Part shown: in pieces, positions 2,686-51,960 of the stretch
Layout of the letters: each line of letters opens with the position of its first letter
Numbering within the stretch: the stretch's first letter is position 1
Assembly: GCF_947493125.1 (NCBI RefSeq)
Contig: NZ_CANLQB010000003.1
Span: 470,858-534,857 of the forward strand
Length of the DNA stretch: 64,000 nt
Reading direction: 5' to 3'
DNA from: an uncultured Roseobacter sp.
Lineage (GTDB): Bacteria > Pseudomonadota > Alphaproteobacteria > Rhodobacterales > Rhodobacteraceae
Notes under the pieces: model-generated
Database searches by the model: none
Told to the model about the DNA's origin: nothing
What the model saw: only the letters and a program-made list of their open reading frames with translations
Position numbers and translations under genes: made by a program

Positions 2686-3141
2686 TCAGGTGATCGCTTC
2701 GAGCTTTTCCTTGCTCAGATCACCCGGCACGATGGTCATGGGGATGGGCAAAGTGCCTGCGCTCTTGGTCAGCTCCGTGACCAGCGGGCCGGGGCCCTTC
2801 TTGTCGGTCCCGGCGCCCAGCACCAGCACGCCGATCTCGGGGTCTTCATGGATCTGGGCGAGGATCTCATCGACCGGGCGGCCTTCGCGGATCACCAGTT
2901 CGGGGTCGATCCCCTGGCGGTCGCGCATCCACTTGGCGAAGACCTCGTAATGCACCTCGATTCGCTCGCGCGCCTCTTCGCGCATGACCGCACCCACGCC
3001 GATCCAGTGGTTGAACTCGTCCGGGGGGATCACGGAGAGGATCTCGACCCCGCCGCCGGTGTTCGCCGCCCGCATCGCCGCAAACCGCATGGCGTTGAGG
3101 CATTCACGACTGTCATCAAGCACGACGAGAAACTTCCGCAT
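2686..3141 (-). CDS. Universal stress protein, UspA family
   Basis: 151 residues forming one Usp domain, beginning MRKFLVVLDDSRECLNAMRFA (beta1 with the conserved Asp pair) and carrying the VLVLGAGTDKKGPGPLVTEL segment near residues 104-123, which corresponds to the ATP-binding loop region, with an altered G-x2-G-x9-G(S/T) pattern. Such proteins respond to stress and growth arrest in the cytoplasm. It is divergent from the BLUF gene at 3277; the 135 bases between must hold both promoters. The deviation in the nucleotide loop leaves it unclear whether it binds ATP. Confidence 0.88.
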   Translation of the reverse strand: MRKFLVVLDDSRECLNAMRFAAMRAANTGGGVEILSVIPPDEFNHWIGVGAVMREEARERIEVHYEVFAKWMRDRQGIDPELVIREGRPVDEILAQIHEDPEIGVLVLGAGTDKKGPGPLVTELTKSAGTLPIPMTIVPGDLSKEKLEAIT

Positions 3142-3276
3142 CTTCCGATGTCCCCCTCTTTGCGCGGATCATGACCTCAGTTGCAGGGCGGCGCAATCGC
3201 AATCTCCGCCCGCGCGACTGGACAGACCGGGGATCTGGAGCGATGCTAGAGAGCAGGTGGGACATGAGGCTCCGGG

Positions 3277-3669
3277 ATGGGTGTCTTTCAACTGATCTAT
3301 ACATCGCGCCCCTTCGGTTACGATCTGAACGTGCTGGCCAACATCCTGGCCACCTCGCGCAGCCGCAATGCCCGGGACGACATCACCGGCGCGCTGATCT
3401 GCCGTGCCGATGTGTTCTTGCAACTGCTCGAAGGGCCCAAAGGCAAGGTGCAGGCCACCTATGAGCGGATCTGCGACGACGACCGGCATGTGGAGGTCAC
3501 GCAGCTGGTCGCCGAGGACGTGCCGGACCGGCTGTTTCCGGATTGGGCCATGAAGCACGACCCCGCCGTCTCCTGGATGTGGTCGCCCGTCGAGGTACAT
3601 ATGGGCGCGCTGCAGTCCGCCTCGGCGCTGGCCATCCGGGAGATCTTCGTCAGATCGGCGGTGTCATAG
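3277..3669 (+). CDS. Short BLUF-domain blue-light photoreceptor
   Basis: 130 residues, almost only a BLUF domain. The flavin-pocket residues can be placed: Tyr8 (LIYTS), Asn31 (RNARDDITGAL), Gln49 (FLQLLEG), and Trp90/Met92 (FPDWAM), matching the Tyr-Asn-Gln-Trp-Met set of AppA-type BLUF domains. On blue light the FAD-Tyr-Gln hydrogen-bond network rearranges. There is no output domain, so signalling would be by protein-protein contact. It is convergent with, and overlaps by six bases, the aminotransferase at 3664. The partner is not evident from the neighbours. Confidence 0.92.
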   Translation: MGVFQLIYTSRPFGYDLNVLANILATSRSRNARDDITGALICRADVFLQLLEGPKGKVQATYERICDDDRHVEVTQLVAEDVPDRLFPDWAMKHDPAVSWMWSPVEVHMGALQSASALAIREIFVRSAVS

Positions 3670-4530
3670 GGGCTGGGTCGCGGCCCAGTCCCAGTACATC
3701 TCACGCAGGCGCCGGGCGATGGGCCCGATCTGATAGGCGGTGTCCTCGAAGCCGGTGACCGGCGTGACCTTCGACATGTTGCCGGTCATGAACACCTCGT
3801 CGGCGCGCTCGAAATCCTCGAAGGTCAGCACGCATTCATGCACGCGCACCCCCTCCGCCTTGAGATGTGCGATGTGGCGGGCGCGGGTGATGCCGGAGAG
3901 GAAGGTGCCGTTGGGGACGGGCGTGAAGACCTCGCCATCGCGGGTCATGAAGATGTTGGCGGTGGCGGTTTCGGCCACATTGCCTATGGCGTCCGCCACC
4001 AGCGCGTTCTGGAACCCGCGCGCCCGCACTTCGGTCAGCATGCGCGCGTTGTTGGGATAGAGGCAGCCTGCCTTGGCGTTCACCACCGCATCCTCCATCA
4101 CCGGGCGGCGGAACCGCGTGCGCCCGAGCGTGACGGCGGCATCCGCGGGCGCCATGGGGATCTGCTCGAGGCTGACGGCGAAGCCGGTCGCCCCCTCTCG
4201 TGGCACGATCGCGGTCGCATCGCCGTGGATCGCCCAGTACATCGGGCGGATGTAGACCGCATCCTCCGGCCCGTAATGGGCGAGCCCCTCGCGGATGATC
4301 TCGACCATGTCGTCCACGGTGACGGTGGGCGTGATCATGAGCGCTTCGGCGGAGCGGTTCACCCGCGCGCAATGCGCCACCAGATCCGGCGCGCGCCCGT
4401 CGAAGAAGCGCGCCCCGTCGAACACCGTGGTGCCGAGCCAGGCGCCGTGGTCGGCCGCCCCGATCACCGCAAGGTCGCCCGCGTGCCAGCGTCCGTCATG
4501 GTAGGTGTGAATATGGGTGCCGACGCTCAT
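3664..4530 (-). CDS. ilvE: Branched-chain amino acid aminotransferase (class IV PLP enzyme)
   Basis: 288 residues from the ATG at 4530. Fold-type IV landmarks are a short N-terminal region with GTTVFDGARFFDGR (about 40-53), the PLP-lysine region VNAKAGCLYPNNARML (about 158-173), and the NVAETATANIFM block (about 191-202). This family interconverts Leu/Ile/Val and their 2-oxo acids with 2-oxoglutarate, though D-amino-acid transaminases share the fold. An upstream in-frame start at 4611 would add 27 residues without family support and overlap the next gene. The gene symbol is a best guess. Confidence 0.82.
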   Translation of the reverse strand: MSVGTHIHTYHDGRWHAGDLAVIGAADHGAWLGTTVFDGARFFDGRAPDLVAHCARVNRSAEALMITPTVTVDDMVEIIREGLAHYGPEDAVYIRPMYWAIHGDATAIVPREGATGFAVSLEQIPMAPADAAVTLGRTRFRRPVMEDAVVNAKAGCLYPNNARMLTEVRARGFQNALVADAIGNVAETATANIFMTRDGEVFTPVPNGTFLSGITRARHIAHLKAEGVRVHECVLTFEDFERADEVFMTGNMSKVTPVTGFEDTAYQIGPIARRLREMYWDWAATQPL

Positions 4531-4553
4531 GGATCCGTCTCCGACAGGGAAGG

Positions 4554-4781
4554 TTACTTGGCGCGATAGACGCCTTCGGGCAGGTTCAGCGCCGCGTTCA
4601 GATCGCGCCATTGCTCCGGCGAGAGGGTGATCGACACCACCTTGTCGGTGCGCGGATCGTACTGGTTGAGCAGGATCGCGCTTTCCGTGGCGTGGACCGT
4701 CACATCTTCCTGCAAGGGGGTGGTGCCGTCGTCCACCAGCGTGACCACGGTGGCGTCGAATTCATGCTCGATGGTAAACAT
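4554..4781 (-). CDS. Small conserved hypothetical protein
   Basis: 75-residue acidic protein (MFTIEHEFDATVVTLVDDG...) with regular alternating strands and a C-terminal SPEQWRDLNAALNLPEGVYR segment. No known domain is recognised. It has good coding character in the local style, sits 23 bases upstream of the aminotransferase on the same strand, and is probably co-transcribed with it. Function unknown. Confidence 0.7.
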   Translation of the reverse strand: MFTIEHEFDATVVTLVDDGTTPLQEDVTVHATESAILLNQYDPRTDKVVSITLSPEQWRDLNAALNLPEGVYRAK

Positions 4782-4899
4782 GGCGTCACCTTACGGCTCA
4801 GGCGTCCCGATGCAAGGGGGACAAAGCACCGTGAGCGGGGTGGTCGCCGCCGGGGAACCTGCTAAGATACGGATCGAGTATCAGTGCGGAGGCGTCTTT

Positions 4900-5595
4900 A
4901 TGGCCTGGAAAACCCTACTTGCGGTGATGGCCGCGATCACCCTGGCAGCCTGTGACGTGAGCGCGCCCTCTGCGCCGCTGACGGTTGAGCCCATCGGGAC
5001 TGTCCCGCGCGCGTCTGCACAGAATTTCGCGCAGGTCGTGCGGATTGTGGAGCCGGTGGCCGAGCGCGAATGCCGGGCGCGTACCTCGGGCGTGAACTGC
5101 GATTTCAAGGTGCTGGTGGACGACCGCCCGGGCCAGCCTCCCAACGCCTTCCAGACGCTCGACAGGTCGGGCCGCCCGATCATTGCCTTCACCCAGGCGC
5201 TGATTGATGACGCGCGCAACGTGGACGAGCTGGCCTTTGTCATGGGGCATGAGGCGGCGCATCACATCGCCGGGCATATTCCGCGCCAGCAGCAGAATGC
5301 GGTGGCCGGTGCGGTGATCGGAGGCCTTGGCGCGGTGCTGTTGGGGGGCAACGCCGAGGCTGTGCAGAACGCGCAGCGGCAGGGCGCCCGGATCAACGCC
5401 CGCGCGTTTTCGAAGGAGTTCGAGCTGGAGGCCGATGCGCTGGGCACGGTCATTACGGCGCGGGCCGGGTTTGACCCCCTGCGCGGGGCGGAATTTTTCA
5501 ACCGCATCCCCGATCCCGGCGACCGCTTCCTCGGCACGCACCCGCCCAACGCGCAGCGCATCGATATCGTGCGGCGGACGGCAGCGGGGCTCTAG
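4900..5595 (+). CDS. M48-family metalloprotease, probable lipoprotein
   Basis: 231 residues. The N-terminus MAWKTLLAVMAAITLAACD is a lipoprotein signal with lipobox LAAC (lipidated Cys18). The zinc-binding HEAAH motif lies at residues 117-121 and the third ligand is Glu177 in EFELEAD. M48 proteases of this kind (YcaL/LoiP/BepA relatives) act in the periplasm on outer membrane or envelope proteins. The C-terminus has the GTHPPNAQRIDIV motif typical of these proteins. An in-frame ORF begins at 4627 but the signal peptide fixes the start at 4900. Its stop overlaps the convergent DCC gene by four bases. Confidence 0.92.
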   Translation: MAWKTLLAVMAAITLAACDVSAPSAPLTVEPIGTVPRASAQNFAQVVRIVEPVAERECRARTSGVNCDFKVLVDDRPGQPPNAFQTLDRSGRPIIAFTQALIDDARNVDELAFVMGHEAAHHIAGHIPRQQQNAVAGAVIGGLGAVLLGGNAEAVQNAQRQGARINARAFSKEFELEADALGTVITARAGFDPLRGAEFFNRIPDPGDRFLGTHPPNAQRIDIVRRTAAGL

Positions 5596-8315: not shown

Positions 8316-10226
8316 ATGAAATGGGTTGTGCGACTGCTGGGTGTCGTGGTGGTGCTGATCGGGGTGGCGGTGGTCTCGGTGCTGTTCCTGCCCGCGGAGC
8401 GTGTGGCGAAGATCGCCGCGGATCAGCTGCGCGGGCTCACGGGGCGCGATGTGGCGATCACCGGGGATGTGTCGCTGACGCTCTGGCCGGTCTTGGGCGC
8501 ACGCGTCGGCGGGCTGGAGGTCGGCAATGCGGAGTGGGCCAGCGACGGCCCGATGCTGCAGGCGACCAATACGGCGATTGGTGTCGATGCCATGGCGCTT
8601 CTGAGCGGTGACATCCGGATCACCAACATCGAAGCCGAGAGCCCCACCATTCGTCTTGAGCAAAAGGCTGACGGGCGGGCAAGCTGGCAGTTCACCGATG
8701 CCAGTGGCACGGCACAGATCGAGACCGAAACGGCGCCTGATCGCCCCGCGCGGTCGGTCAGCATTGAGCGGCTGCAGGTCACCGATGCAACGCTGATCTA
8801 TGACGCTGAGGGCAGCGATCTGGTGTCTTACGAGGGTGTCGACCTGTCGCTCGACTGGCCGGAGCGGCTGGGGCCTGCCGAGATCGCGGCGACCCTGCGC
8901 CCGACGGCGAACCCGGTGGAGGTGGCGGCGACCATCGACGGGTTTGCGGGCTTCATCACTGGCGAGACCCACACGCTGCGCGCGTCAATTGACACAGAAG
9001 CCGGGGCCATTGGCTTTGACGGGCGGGCGAGCACCGCCGGGGCTGTGGCTGGGGCGCTGACGGTGAAGACGGCGAACACGGGAGCGTTTCTGCAAGCGCT
9101 GGGGCTGCCTGGTGCAGATTTGCCGCCTGACCTCGGGCGCAGCATTGATCTGTCGACCACGCTGACGCTGACGCCCGACCGGCAGTTGGCGCTGCGGGAT
9201 CTGGTGGTAGGTCTCGGTGCCAACCGGGTCACCGGGGCGGCGGATATAGGGCTCAATGGGGTGCCGCAGGTGAATGCGCAGCTCGATGTGGGTGATCTGG
9301 ATCTGTCAGGCGGTGACGCATCGGCGTCGGGTGGCTCCGGCGGAGGGGGAGGCGGGTCCGCAGGCGGCGGTTGGCCCACCGACCCGATTGATGCCAGCGG
9401 GCTGGCGGCCTTCAACGGTGAGATCGCGCTGACGGCGCGGAGTATTGATCTGGGGCAGTTCGATCTGGGAGCCACGCGGGCGCTCTTGCGCAATGAGACG
9501 TCGCGCATGGTCTTCGAGCTGCGCGAGGTGGCGGCCTATAGCGGCGGGGTCACGGGGGAATTCGTGATCAACAACCGCTCCGGCCTGTCGGTGGGCGGGC
9601 AGCTGGCGGCGACGGCCATCCAGATGCAGCCCTTGCTGGCTGATGCGGCGGGGCTCGACCGGCTGACCGGGCAGGGGGAGGCGCGCCTGTCGTTTCTGGG
9701 CTCGGGCAATTCGGTCGATGCGATCATGAAATCGCTCTCGGGCGACGGATCCCTGCAGATCGGGCGCGGGACAATCCTGGGCATTGATCTGGACCGGTTG
9801 ATGCGTTCGGGGGATACCTCGCCGGGCACCACGGTGTTCGACAGCCTCGGCGGGACCTGGACGATTGCGGGTGGTGTGCTGAGCAACCGCGATCTGCTGC
9901 TGCAGCTGGCGAATTACCGGGCAAGCGGCGAAGGCGTGGTGGGCCTGGGGGCGCAAACGGTGGATTATACCGTCACGCCGGTGGCGCTGCGCGCGAACAG
10001 CGGGCAGGGCGTGTCGATCCCCGTGCGGTTTGTGGGGCCTTGGTCGGACATCTCGATCCGGCCCGACGTGGAGGCGGCGCTGAAGGCCGAGGCGGATGCC
10101 AAGGTGGATGAGCTGGAGCAGAAGGCCAAGGAGAAGATCGGCGAGCGTTTGGGCATCTCCGGGGAGGAGGGCCAGTCGGTCGAAGATGCGGTGAAGGACC
10201 GGCTGTTGCGCAAGCTTTTCGACTGA
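8316..10226 (+). CDS. AsmA-family envelope protein
   Basis: 636 residues. The N-terminus [25 protein letters not shown] is a membrane anchor, followed by the AsmA N-terminal domain ([28 protein letters not shown]) and a long beta-rich periplasmic region. A Gly/Ser-rich linker lies near residues 333-348, and the C-terminal AsmA_2 region precedes a charged helical tail ([13 protein letters not shown]). AsmA-like proteins belong to the bridge-like group thought to move lipids between inner and outer membranes. The start at 8316 gives the signal anchor; earlier in-frame codons are antisense to rimO. Ends at a strong hairpin. Confidence 0.9.
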
Positions 10227-49856: not shown

Positions 49857-49931
49857 GCCCGGGTAGCTCAGGGGTAGAGCAGTGGATTGAAAATCCTCGT
49901 GTCGGTGGTTCGATTCCGCCCCCGGGCACCA
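49857..49931 (+). tRNA. tRNA-Phe (GAA)
   Basis: 75 bases including an encoded CCA. Acceptor GCCCGGG pairs with CCCGGGC, the D stem is GCTC/GAGC, the T stem GGTGG/CCGCC with TTCGATT loop. The anticodon loop TTGAAAA gives GAA. The anticodon stem GTGGA/TCCTC has a T-T mismatch at its second pair. It borders the foreign island to its right. Confidence 0.96.
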
Positions 49932-50139: not shown

Positions 50140-51489
50140 TTGTTTGATCAATCATTTTCCCCACAGAACCTAAGAAAAATTACAGAGATCGAAAACAGGC
50201 GAGGCTCAAACAAGAGCTTCGAGTTTTTTCCACCCGTTCTGGTTGCCACCGAAGAGCTAAAAGACTGCATAAGGGCGACCAAACACTTCCGAGCAACTCA
50301 CAAACACAAGTATTCGGTAGCTGACCAAGCGATTTTTGACGCACTCAAAGAAGATCGTGAAAACGCTAGGAAAGCAAGGGATCAAGAGTTACTTTCCTGT
50401 TTGGCGAACATTTCGGATGAAATATCCAAGAAGAGCTTTAGGATACGCATACGCAGGGTGGGAGGCCCCAATGGCAAGCCTGTCTATATCGTTCCTGAAA
50501 CACCCTTGGACGCCTATGCGCAGAGCTACTACGCGATCAAACAAATCGCCAATAACATATCCAGAATCTACAAAGTAAGGCAAGCGAATAGAAATCGAAT
50601 TGTAACGCAACTGAGTGACGGATTTCCATATCACGTGGTCAAATTGGATGTGCAAGAGTTCTACGAGTCGGTTGACCATTCTGTTTTGCTTACCAAGCTG
50701 AAGTCTGATCAACTCCTAAGCGCAACGACAATGCGTCTGATCGAACGCCTTCTTTGGGATTATGCCGCGGTTGCAGGAACACCTGGACGGGGATTGCCAC
50801 GTGGCGTTGGCCTCAGCGCCATCCTGTCAGAACTATACATGCGGGATTTTGATGACCGCATATCGACGCTCGAAGAAGTCGCTTTCTATGCGCGTTATGT
50901 TGACGACATCATCATACTTTTCGCCCCAACGAAAGGTTCCACAAGTGACGACTACCGAAAGGCAGTTGTCGAAGAACTTAGGCGCAAGAGGCTGGTCGTT
51001 AATGCGAGCAAGTCTACAGAAGCTCGTCCGGCTACTGAGCTGACGTACCTTGGCTACAAGTTCCGTAATGTGCGGAGTACTTCGTGTACGGTTCTGATGA
51101 GCGACGCAAAGTTTCAGAAATACAAGAAAAGGCTCAACGCGTGTTTCACGAGATACAATCGACAAAGGGCGAGGAAATCTAAGAAAGCATACAGGTTGCT
51201 CGTCAAACGTGTGCAGTACCTTACCGGAAACACGCAGCTAACGCACAGCAAGCAAAACGCGTTTGTGGGTATCTACTTCAGCAATCCACACCTAACCGAT
51301 TTGTCTCAGCTTCAAAGACTAGACGATGCGCTGGCTACACACATTGGCAAACTAGCACACAGCGCAAGTCTAAGGACCAAACTTCAGGCGTACTCATTTC
51401 ATGCTGGATATTCTGAAAGAACGTTCCGTCGGTTCCATCGCTTGCGCGAATTTGAAGAGATAACAAAGGCATGGAAATATGGTCAGTAA
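50140..51489 (+). CDS. drt3a: Reverse transcriptase, probably Drt3a of a type 3 DRT defence system
   Basis: 449 residues starting at a TTG (50140) with a modest AGAGAG box upstream. The RT palm is intact: VVKLDVQEFYESVDHS (motif A with catalytic Asp), RGLPRGVGLSAILSELYM (motif B) and YARYVDDIIIL (motif C, YVDD). The N-terminus MFDQSFSPQNLRKITEIENRRG and the basic C-terminal half match my knowledge of Drt3a (UG3-type) proteins, which act with a second RT, Drt3b, and an RNA against phage. GC is about 40-50% by eye against about two-thirds around it, a sign of transfer. The overlapping next gene fits Drt3b but is cut short. Other RT classes are less likely: no intron maturase or retron features are seen. 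Confidence 0.8.
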   Translation: MFDQSFSPQNLRKITEIENRRGSNKSFEFFPPVLVATEELKDCIRATKHFRATHKHKYSVADQAIFDALKEDRENARKARDQELLSCLANISDEISKKSFRIRIRRVGGPNGKPVYIVPETPLDAYAQSYYAIKQIANNISRIYKVRQANRNRIVTQLSDGFPYHVVKLDVQEFYESVDHSVLLTKLKSDQLLSATTMRLIERLLWDYAAVAGTPGRGLPRGVGLSAILSELYMRDFDDRISTLEEVAFYARYVDDIIILFAPTKGSTSDDYRKAVVEELRRKRLVVNASKSTEARPATELTYLGYKFRNVRSTSCTVLMSDAKFQKYKKRLNACFTRYNRQRARKSKKAYRLLVKRVQYLTGNTQLTHSKQNAFVGIYFSNPHLTDLSQLQRLDDALATHIGKLAHSASLRTKLQAYSFHAGYSERTFRRFHRLREFEEITKAWKYGQ

Positions 51490-51777
51490 ACGCTCGATCC
51501 CGGCAAGATATAGTTACCATAGACCGATACTCTCTGACGTTCATCCATTCGAGGTTCCACCGACTTTCAGCAACGGAGGGTTCTTCGACTTTGTTACTAG
51601 ATATGATGTGAGGCTGGAGCAAAGTGGTCGAAAGACACTTGTTGTATGGGAGTGCTCAAATGATCGATTGGATCAAGTCATCCAATTGTTGTTCAAAACC
51701 TGCCGAAAGCACCCTGTGGCTTCGCCACCTTCGGGAAACGACCGAAACTTCATTGAGAACCCGACGCAGAGCAACTT
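51479..51777 (+). pseudogene. Truncated second reverse transcriptase gene, probably drt3b remnant
   Basis: A frame begins at an ATG (51479) overlapping the RT stop by 11 bases, as expected for a coupled partner. Residues 1-72 (MVSKRSIPARYSYHRPILSD..., PFEVPPTFSNGGFF, DRLDQVIQLLF) look like the start of a UG8/Drt3b-type RT with the RPxLxDxxPxEVPxxFSN pattern. After about position 51694 the sequence changes character and the frame runs through repeat and IS debris to a stop at 52042. None of the catalytic RT motifs is present, so the protein cannot be a working polymerase. Confidence 0.6.
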
Positions 51778-51850
51778 TGGTCTTCCCCCACTTGAGTGGT
51801 CCTCCGCTTTCCTAAACATAGCGGAGGACCACTCAAGTGGGGGAAGACCA
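51778..51850. repeat. 31-bp perfect inverted repeat with 11-base loop, IS-end-like
   Basis: Arms 51778-51808 and 51820-51850 are exact complements, containing CTTGAGTGGTCCTCCGCT on the left arm. It sits directly at the break between the truncated RT gene and a transposase relic, so two head-to-head IS ends, or a MITE-like remnant, is the simplest reading. The structure would also form a very stable hairpin. Confidence 0.8.
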
Positions 51851-51960
51851 CACAGCCTTTCTCAGCCGCTCGCCCTCCTTCTGAAGTCGTTTGAGTTCCC
51901 TGAGTTGGTCGGTTCCCATACCGCATTGCCGCCGATGCTCGAAACGGACCGAGTCGAGGT
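51833..51960 (-). pseudogene. IS3-family OrfA transposase fragment
   Basis: Reading minus from 51919 gives MGTDQLRELKRLQKEGERLR followed by KAV, the leucine-zipper part of IS3-family OrfA, then a stop at 51833. Upstream codons (RRQCG) match the usual R-x-Y-G-G before it poorly, and the HTH part is lost. It is a relic without transposition ability. Confidence 0.7.

What the first reader, a model, noticed from the sequence alone, without database searches (positions are those of the whole stretch)
50140..51489. Type 3 DRT-like antiviral reverse transcriptase on an AT-rich island
An intact RT (motif A LDVQEFYESVD, motif C YVDD) in a clearly foreign AT-rich block behind a tRNA gene, with a coupled second gene of RT-like N-terminus. 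This layout and the MFDQSFSPQNLRKI start fit Drt3a of the DRT type 3 defence systems, which I know to use two RTs (UG3 and UG8 types). A roseobacter copy would widen its known range, and a lone Drt3a would be unusual.
Basis: partly seen in the sequence, partly recalled or inferred. Interest (0 to 1): 0.85.

Follow-up and report, generated by a model that had tools for sequence, protein, structure and literature searches.

The report
Broken two-enzyme phage-defence (DRT3) remnant
Beside a tRNA gene sits one reverse-transcriptase gene (drt3a) of a known two-enzyme phage-defence system, but its partner gene is cut down to a stub and no template RNA was found in the genome, so the system is likely dead.

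Summary
Window 50140-51489 is a Drt3a reverse transcriptase: 360 bits to NCBI's Drt3a model (cut-off 200), inside the Drt3a clade, 92% identical to a Tritonibacter mobilis copy. The second gene (51479) is only the start of drt3b: it matches T. mobilis to 51774 (98 of 710 codons), then meets a 73-bp palindrome of insertion-sequence ends. Whole-genome searches found neither the rest of drt3b nor the template RNA. In 75 of 75 fetched loci with full-length drt3b (74 distinct records), ACACAC starts 31-143 nt past its last sense codon; the window has no such site. Drt3a also lacks four residues before motif A; none of the other 119 listed homologues is shorter there. This is most likely a recently broken DRT3 locus at a tRNA-Phe integration hot spot, its Drt3a left without template or partner. 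Roseobacter Drt3a proteins already bear that name at NCBI, so the range is not new. More useful by-products: a drt3a-drt3b-ACACAC layout across distant bacteria, and other copies broken at drt3b. An orphan Drt3a with a new partner is possible but unsupported.

The parts
49857..49931 (+). tRNA-Phe (GAA), the likely integration site
   Evidence: ARAGORN, Rfam tRNA. The same tRNA-Phe lies upstream of DRT3 in L042 and L045. Second copies of its 3' part (46-48 bp) lie downstream in direct orientation in same-genus genomes G395 and G403; G397 has one 28 kb away in inverted orientation.
50140..51489 (+). drt3a, 449 aa, TTG start, open frame, private 4-aa deletion after residue 157
   Evidence: NF041747 360 bits; PADLOC Drt3a 367 bits; PDB 9z6y Drt3a best sequence hit; tree; shorter segment in 1 of 120 aligned homologues, the window's own.
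51479..51774 (+). drt3b stub: first 98 of about 710 codons; keeps the residue that aligns with EcoDrt3b E22, lacks the RT catalytic motifs and the terminal tyrosine
   Evidence: Homology to intact L041 drt3b ends at 51774; NF041748 positions 1-48 only; landmarks in L041 Drt3b: E25, motif A 241, YVDD 340, last residue Y710.
51778..51850 (.). 73-bp near-perfect palindrome made of insertion-sequence ends; identical second copy at G000:C16:54113-54185
   Evidence: ends of what look like full-size copies stand at several contig ends of the genome.
51851..51931 (-). short fragment resembling an IS3-type first transposase reading frame (GTDQLRELKR...)
   Evidence: Reading of the minus strand compared by eye with the DNA at the start of the genome's own element (L144); no Pfam match for the 27-aa piece, so the name is recalled.

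Best explanation
This is the remnant of a DRT3 locus (a phage-defence system, by its relatives), likely acquired by horizontal transfer at a tRNA-Phe site, with only a stub of its partner gene drt3b and no detectable template RNA, leaving an open but probably idle drt3a. In working DRT3 (shown in E. coli, PMC13174585) Drt3a copies an ACACAC stretch of a noncoding RNA encoded just after drt3b into poly(dTdG), while Drt3b makes poly(dCdA) with its own side chains as template; the two strands pair into DNA, and the system stops growth when phage Gam inhibits RecBCD. Here an insertion sequence likely entered drt3b at codon 99, and a deletion from its end likely removed the other 612 codons and the RNA gene. 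Without template or partner, Drt3a is predicted to make no product and give no DRT3 immunity. Shown: the truncation, no Drt3b remainder and no matching RNA found elsewhere in the genome, the 4-aa deletion. Inferred: order of events, loss of function, horizontal origin.
For: Drt3a identity by models, solved-structure sequences and tree. Window and T. mobilis L041 are 90% identical from 50141 to 51774; homology stops 3 bp before the palindrome. The Drt3b profile finds only the stub and two other RTs in the genome, which are Drt6 (518 bits) and Drt8 (491 bits). A covariance model of the RNA after drt3b (9 sequences) finds all 9 training loci and 11 of 14 others with full-length drt3b (E 8e-7 to 0.06; missed: L051, L060, L067), but nothing in the window, and in the genome only a 14.6-bit, E 9.5 match in DNA without ACACAC. 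ACACAC follows drt3b in 75 of 75 loci with full-length drt3b, one record counted twice. dN/dS between window and L041 is 0.10 for drt3a and 0.12 for the stub, so most of their divergence was under selection and the break is probably younger.
Against: The drt3a frame has stayed open and has 5 private residues among 39 aligned proteins, within the 1-25 of the other 13 rows printed, so decay of Drt3a itself is slight. Lineage counts lean to relaxed selection (12 N:16 S in the window, 7 N:25 S in L041) but not significantly (Fisher p 0.10). AlphaFold keeps the RT fold (mean pLDDT 88.2). The RNA model is not perfectly sensitive: it also misses L112 and L164, which do have drt3b and ACACAC. The assembly is a draft (32 contigs) and the palindrome is a repeat, so a misjoin at 51778-51850 is not formally excluded, although the contig runs on for 12 kb.
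Confidence: 0.9

Rival explanations
1. An assembly misjoin at the 73-bp repeat hides an intact DRT3 system: the real drt3b continues elsewhere or across a full insertion sequence.
For: Draft genome; the same 73 bp occur twice in full and its halves at several contig ends; those contig ends reach about 75 bp into the element, close to the repeat's length.
Against: A whole-genome profile search finds no other piece of drt3b and the RNA model no template RNA, although the genome is rated 100% complete; a misjoin with both halves present would show the other half.
Confidence: 0.05
2. Orphan Drt3a is still in use, with an unrelated RNA as template or another RT of the cell (Drt6 or Drt8) as partner.
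For: Open frame, low dN/dS, few private residues, two other DRT-type RTs in the same genome.
Against: The published enzyme needs its RNA for product and defence needs Drt3b (PMC13174585); only 3 of 76 evaluable loci lack a full-length one-frame drt3b (L045, L059, L098); the window's Drt3a has its own 4-aa deletion next to the active site.
Confidence: 0.03
3. A non-DRT3 reverse transcriptase (group II intron, retron or another UG class).
For: Weaker matches to group II intron, Drt2, retron and other UG models.
Against: Drt3a wins by 236 bits in PADLOC and 285 in NCBIfam; tree position; neighbouring Drt3b start.
Confidence: 0.005

Closest known systems
DRT3 of Tritonibacter mobilis NBRC 101030 (L041, NZ_LNWY01000010.1)
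   Same: Drt3a 92% identical; drt3a and drt3b overlap in the same way; DNA 90% identical over 1.6 kb.
   Different: L041 has a full 710-aa Drt3b and an ACACACAC stretch 54 nt past its last sense codon, and sits among ORFs that look like conjugation genes (recalled, not family-tested) rather than at tRNA-Phe.
E. coli DRT3 (EcoDRT3, PMC13174585); Drt3a of PDB 9z6y/9z6z
   Same: A solved Drt3a (9z6y) is the best PDB sequence match; LD..FYES and YVDD motifs shared.
   Different: EcoDRT3 has Drt3b and the downstream RNA, both needed for defence in that paper; the window shows neither.
Pacificibacter marinus DSM 25228 DRT3 (L045)
   Same: Same tRNA-Phe upstream, with a phage-type integrase beside it; its drt3b is also cut (near residue 187) by a transposase with rve domains.
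   Different: Drt3a only 49% identical; the break lies at another codon with another element, so it looks like an independent event.

Membership tests
Drt3a (UG3 RT) | Profile score over NCBI's curated cut-off | tested here: met
   360.4 bits, cut-off 200
Drt3a (UG3 RT) | Placement inside the Drt3a clade | tested here: met
   35 of 35 Drt3a tips together, none of the 23 other RTs inside, support 0.88
Drt3a (UG3 RT) | Catalytic YVDD and motif A aspartate | tested here: met
   D170, D255, D256 (window numbering) invariant in 39 sequences of A1
Drt3a (UG3 RT) | Complete RT domain | tested here: inconclusive
   Full-length match, but 4 residues missing before motif A. Predicted helix 151-162 of P0002 is 151-158 in the window; mean pLDDT of residues 151-170 is about 80 against 91
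DRT3 defence system | Second RT, Drt3b, full length | tested here: not met
   98 of about 710 codons; no other piece found in the genome
DRT3 defence system | Noncoding RNA with ACACAC template downstream of drt3b | tested here: not met
   No model match in window or genome; the only ACACAC on the + strand between 49,900 and 52,100 is at 51337 inside drt3a, and none on the - strand
DRT3 defence system | Phage protection needing both RTs | not testable with these tools
   Needs phage assays

The most novel reading that the evidence does not exclude
DRT3 keeps breaking at drt3b while drt3a stays open: here, in Pacificibacter and in Chryseobacterium (L098). The freed Drt3a lives on as a solo, RNA-templated DNA polymerase that borrows a template or a partner RT from its host.
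Probability: 0.03. Interest if true: 0.7.

Novelty: new member of a known kind. Interest (0 to 1): 0.25.

Why it matters
As a single locus it matters little: a broken copy of a system whose mechanism was described in 2026. The comparison has more use. [quoted passage not shown] two passages seen). In the loci fetched here, from alphaproteobacteria to Bacteroidota and actinobacteria (record titles), every full-length drt3b is followed by ACACAC. The window, with an open Drt3a and neither Drt3b nor RNA, is a natural test of what Drt3a does alone. Its host has AddA and no RecB over the curated cut-off (RecC, RecD and AddB not tested), so in such hosts the nuclease that keeps DRT3 in check may be another one, perhaps AddAB.

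Tried and rejected
Tried without result: Rfam on the window (only the tRNA); a search of the window for the conserved ACACACAAGCTCC stretch (0 matches with up to 2 mismatches); promoter and terminator scan (2 promoter-like sites, shuffles 2.0; 5 terminator-like sites, shuffles 2.7, sd 1.8); an empty tRNA-Phe site in same-genus genomes (regions of 9 genomes, roughly 5 kb right of the tRNA and more in one, match nothing of the window's right flank, so the original right edge is undefined); Foldseek against the PDB (best hits G2L4 RT, DRT9 and group II RTs at TM about 0.4-0.56; 9z6y is not among the 50 rows shown, the library ends in April 2026); plasmids (18 records, all under 60% identity).

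Weak points: the names IS3-type, katG and conjugation-like are recalled, except where Pfam is cited; the link of the stub's residue to EcoDrt3b E22 is by alignment; the RNA model was built from 9 relatives, and the RNA of L163, which it finds at 120.6 bits, is almost identical to that of training sequence L043, so it is a weak control. In one search the model missed 5 of 8 loci (L045, L098 and L162 without full-length drt3b; L112 and L164 with it). Downstream DNA was printed for 29 loci and scanned by script for all 75. Row selection: the tree used 58 sequences picked from those fetched; A1 used 39 of the 120 listed homologues; 661 were found, from a capped candidate list; one search kept the best 80 of 160 loci.

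Full report
What is there. The open frame at 50140-51489 (449 aa, TTG start) is Drt3a. It scores 360.4 bits against NCBI's Drt3a model (cut-off 200; next family 74.9 bits) and 367.5 bits against PADLOC's (best non-Drt3a 131.5). Its best sequence match among solved structures is a Drt3a, 9z6y. In a tree of 58 reverse transcriptases, all 35 Drt3a tips, the window among them, form one clade with no other RT inside (support 0.88); the other 23 are 21 weak Drt3a-model hits from the same family of bacteria plus this genome's Drt6 and Drt8. The window groups with P0002, P0003 and P0005, next to P0008 from Aliiroseovarius. It lies in an AT-rich stretch (G+C 0.473 against 0.643), 208 bp behind a tRNA-Phe gene.

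The second gene. The frame at 51479 begins as Drt3b (29.4 bits over profile positions 1-48, far under the cut-off of 350). Compared with the intact operon of Tritonibacter mobilis NBRC 101030 (L041; Drt3a 92% identical), the DNA is 90% identical from 50141 to 51774 and then stops. L041's Drt3b has 710 residues, with motif A at 241, YVDD at 340 and a terminal tyrosine; in the E. coli enzyme the tyrosine at the C-terminal end, Y666, primes the DNA (PMC13174585). The window keeps 98 codons: it has the residue that aligns with the E. coli adenine gate E22, but none of the later catalytic motifs and no terminal tyrosine. After three more bases a 73-bp palindrome starts (51778-51850). A second identical copy lies in another contig, and ends of what look like full-size elements of the same kind stand at several contig ends. 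Right of it lies a short antisense piece resembling the same kind of transposase, then the end of a catalase-peroxidase-like gene (katG by recall).

What is missing. In E. coli DRT3 the template RNA is encoded just after drt3b and carries ACACAC (PMC13174585; I read the abstract, passages and the whole Results section). I asked where it lies in the relatives. Of 80 related loci from named genomes (the best 80 of 160), 73 have a full-length Drt3b in one frame, two of them (L063, L112) with a transposase gene between the two RT genes; of the other 7, 4 run out of contig (L050, L072, L077, L093), one has it in two frames (L059), one is cut by a transposase (L045) and one has none (L098). With L164 and L165 that makes 75 with full-length Drt3b, 74 distinct records. 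All 75 have ACACAC, the first one starting 31-143 nt past the last sense codon, and all 75 keep the glutamate that aligns with E22. A covariance model from nine alphaproteobacterial copies (22 pairs; in the alignment, 10 of 22 pairs have at least one both-sided change; model) finds the nine training loci and 11 of 14 other loci with full-length drt3b, with E-values from 8e-7 to 0.06; it misses L051, L060 and L067, and finds nothing in L045 or in the window. In a second set of 8 it finds L163 (almost identical to a training sequence), L165 and L063, and misses L112 and L164, which do have ACACAC, and L045, L098 and L162, which lack a full-length drt3b. In the whole genome it finds only a match of 14.6 bits, E 9.5, in DNA without ACACAC. 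The Drt3b profile finds no other piece of drt3b in the genome: its two other hits are Drt6 and Drt8.

State of Drt3a. The window protein lacks four residues (LSDC in its nearest neighbours) just before motif A. Of 120 listed homologues aligned, only the window's own is shorter there. In the DNA the 12 missing bases lie between two similar stretches, as slippage would leave. AlphaFold models made with the same 39 sequences give a helix of residues 151-158 in the window against 151-162 in P0002, and a mean pLDDT of about 80 against 91 over residues 151-170; the fold as a whole is kept (88.2 and 89.5). dN/dS between window and L041 is 0.10 for drt3a and 0.12 for the stub, so most of the divergence was under selection and the break is probably younger than the split. 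Counts polarised with L042 (saturated at silent sites) lean to relaxed selection in the window, 12 N:16 S against 7 N:25 S, but are not significant (p 0.10).

How it got there. tRNA-Phe looks like a hot spot: the same tRNA lies upstream of DRT3 in Aliiroseovarius (L042) and Pacificibacter (L045), in the latter with a phage-type integrase beside it. Same-genus genomes G395 and G403 carry a 46-48-bp second copy of its 3' part downstream in direct orientation, the usual mark of integrase insertion; G397 has one 28 kb away but inverted. The window's genome has no such second copy, and I saw no integrase among its ORFs between 47 and 56 kb (by eye, not family-tested), so the element has probably lost its right edge. 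Comparison did not define that edge: the nine same-genus regions I took match nothing of the window's right flank.

How often this happens. Among 394 genomes of the same family, the window's included, 5 have a Drt3a match over the cut-off. Two of the five have a full-length open Drt3b (G259, G173). In G302 drt3b is split between frames and drt3a holds a TGA; in G386 the Drt3b frame covers only positions 5-326 of my 682-column profile; the window has the stub. Some of these may be sequencing errors. Pacificibacter's drt3b is cut by another transposase.

Reading. The locus most likely was a working DRT3 island that an insertion sequence and a deletion broke, leaving drt3a without template or partner; I put this at 0.9. 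Roseobacter Drt3a proteins already bear that name at NCBI; searches of the paper library for DRT3 with roseobacter, and for defense-associated reverse transcriptase with Rhodobacteraceae, gave no paper. In E. coli, a working DRT3 plasmid could not be propagated without RecBCD (PMC13174585); this genome has AddA (1211 bits) and no RecB over the cut-off, so which nuclease restrains DRT3 in such hosts is an open and testable point. It says nothing firm on why this copy broke, since I did not test the hosts of the intact copies.

Noticed in passing
L001 (G000:C1:689766-693152), 1051-2739; L002 (G000:C9:213867-217238), 1024-2676: The same genome encodes two further defence-type RTs: Drt6 (518 bits, next to an ORF that looks like a site-specific recombinase, by eye) and Drt8 (491 bits).
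   Followed up: partly
L045, 7265-8776: Pacificibacter marinus drt3b is cut near residue 187 by a transposase with rve domains: apparently an independent break of the same gene at the same tRNA-Phe hot spot.
   Followed up: partly
L057, end of drt3b near 9526: Drt3b of Pseudooceanicola atlanticus ends ...LDKKRSR and lacks the tyrosine that stands at or within two residues of the C-terminus in the other 74 tails printed.
   Followed up: no
L098, 6001-7809: Chryseobacterium indologenes has a 602-aa frame with a Drt3a front part and an unrelated-looking tail, and no Drt3b found in the 5.6 kb downstream: possibly another deletion product.
   Followed up: no
L063, 7552-8427; L112, 7306-8223: Transposase genes (rve type; IS1595 type) lie between drt3a and drt3b in Sneathiella and Chryseobacterium.
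   Followed up: no
G000:C16:54113-54185 (L035, 1501-1573): Identical second copy of the 73-bp palindrome, at what looks like the broken end of an alcohol-dehydrogenase-like ORF (by eye); it may be a mobile internal-deletion form of the genome's own insertion sequence.
   Followed up: partly
L164 (G173), 3021-5045: A divergent DRT3 with full-length Drt3b (534 bits) whose RNA is not found by the model, though ACACAC starts 122 nt past the last sense codon.
   Followed up: no
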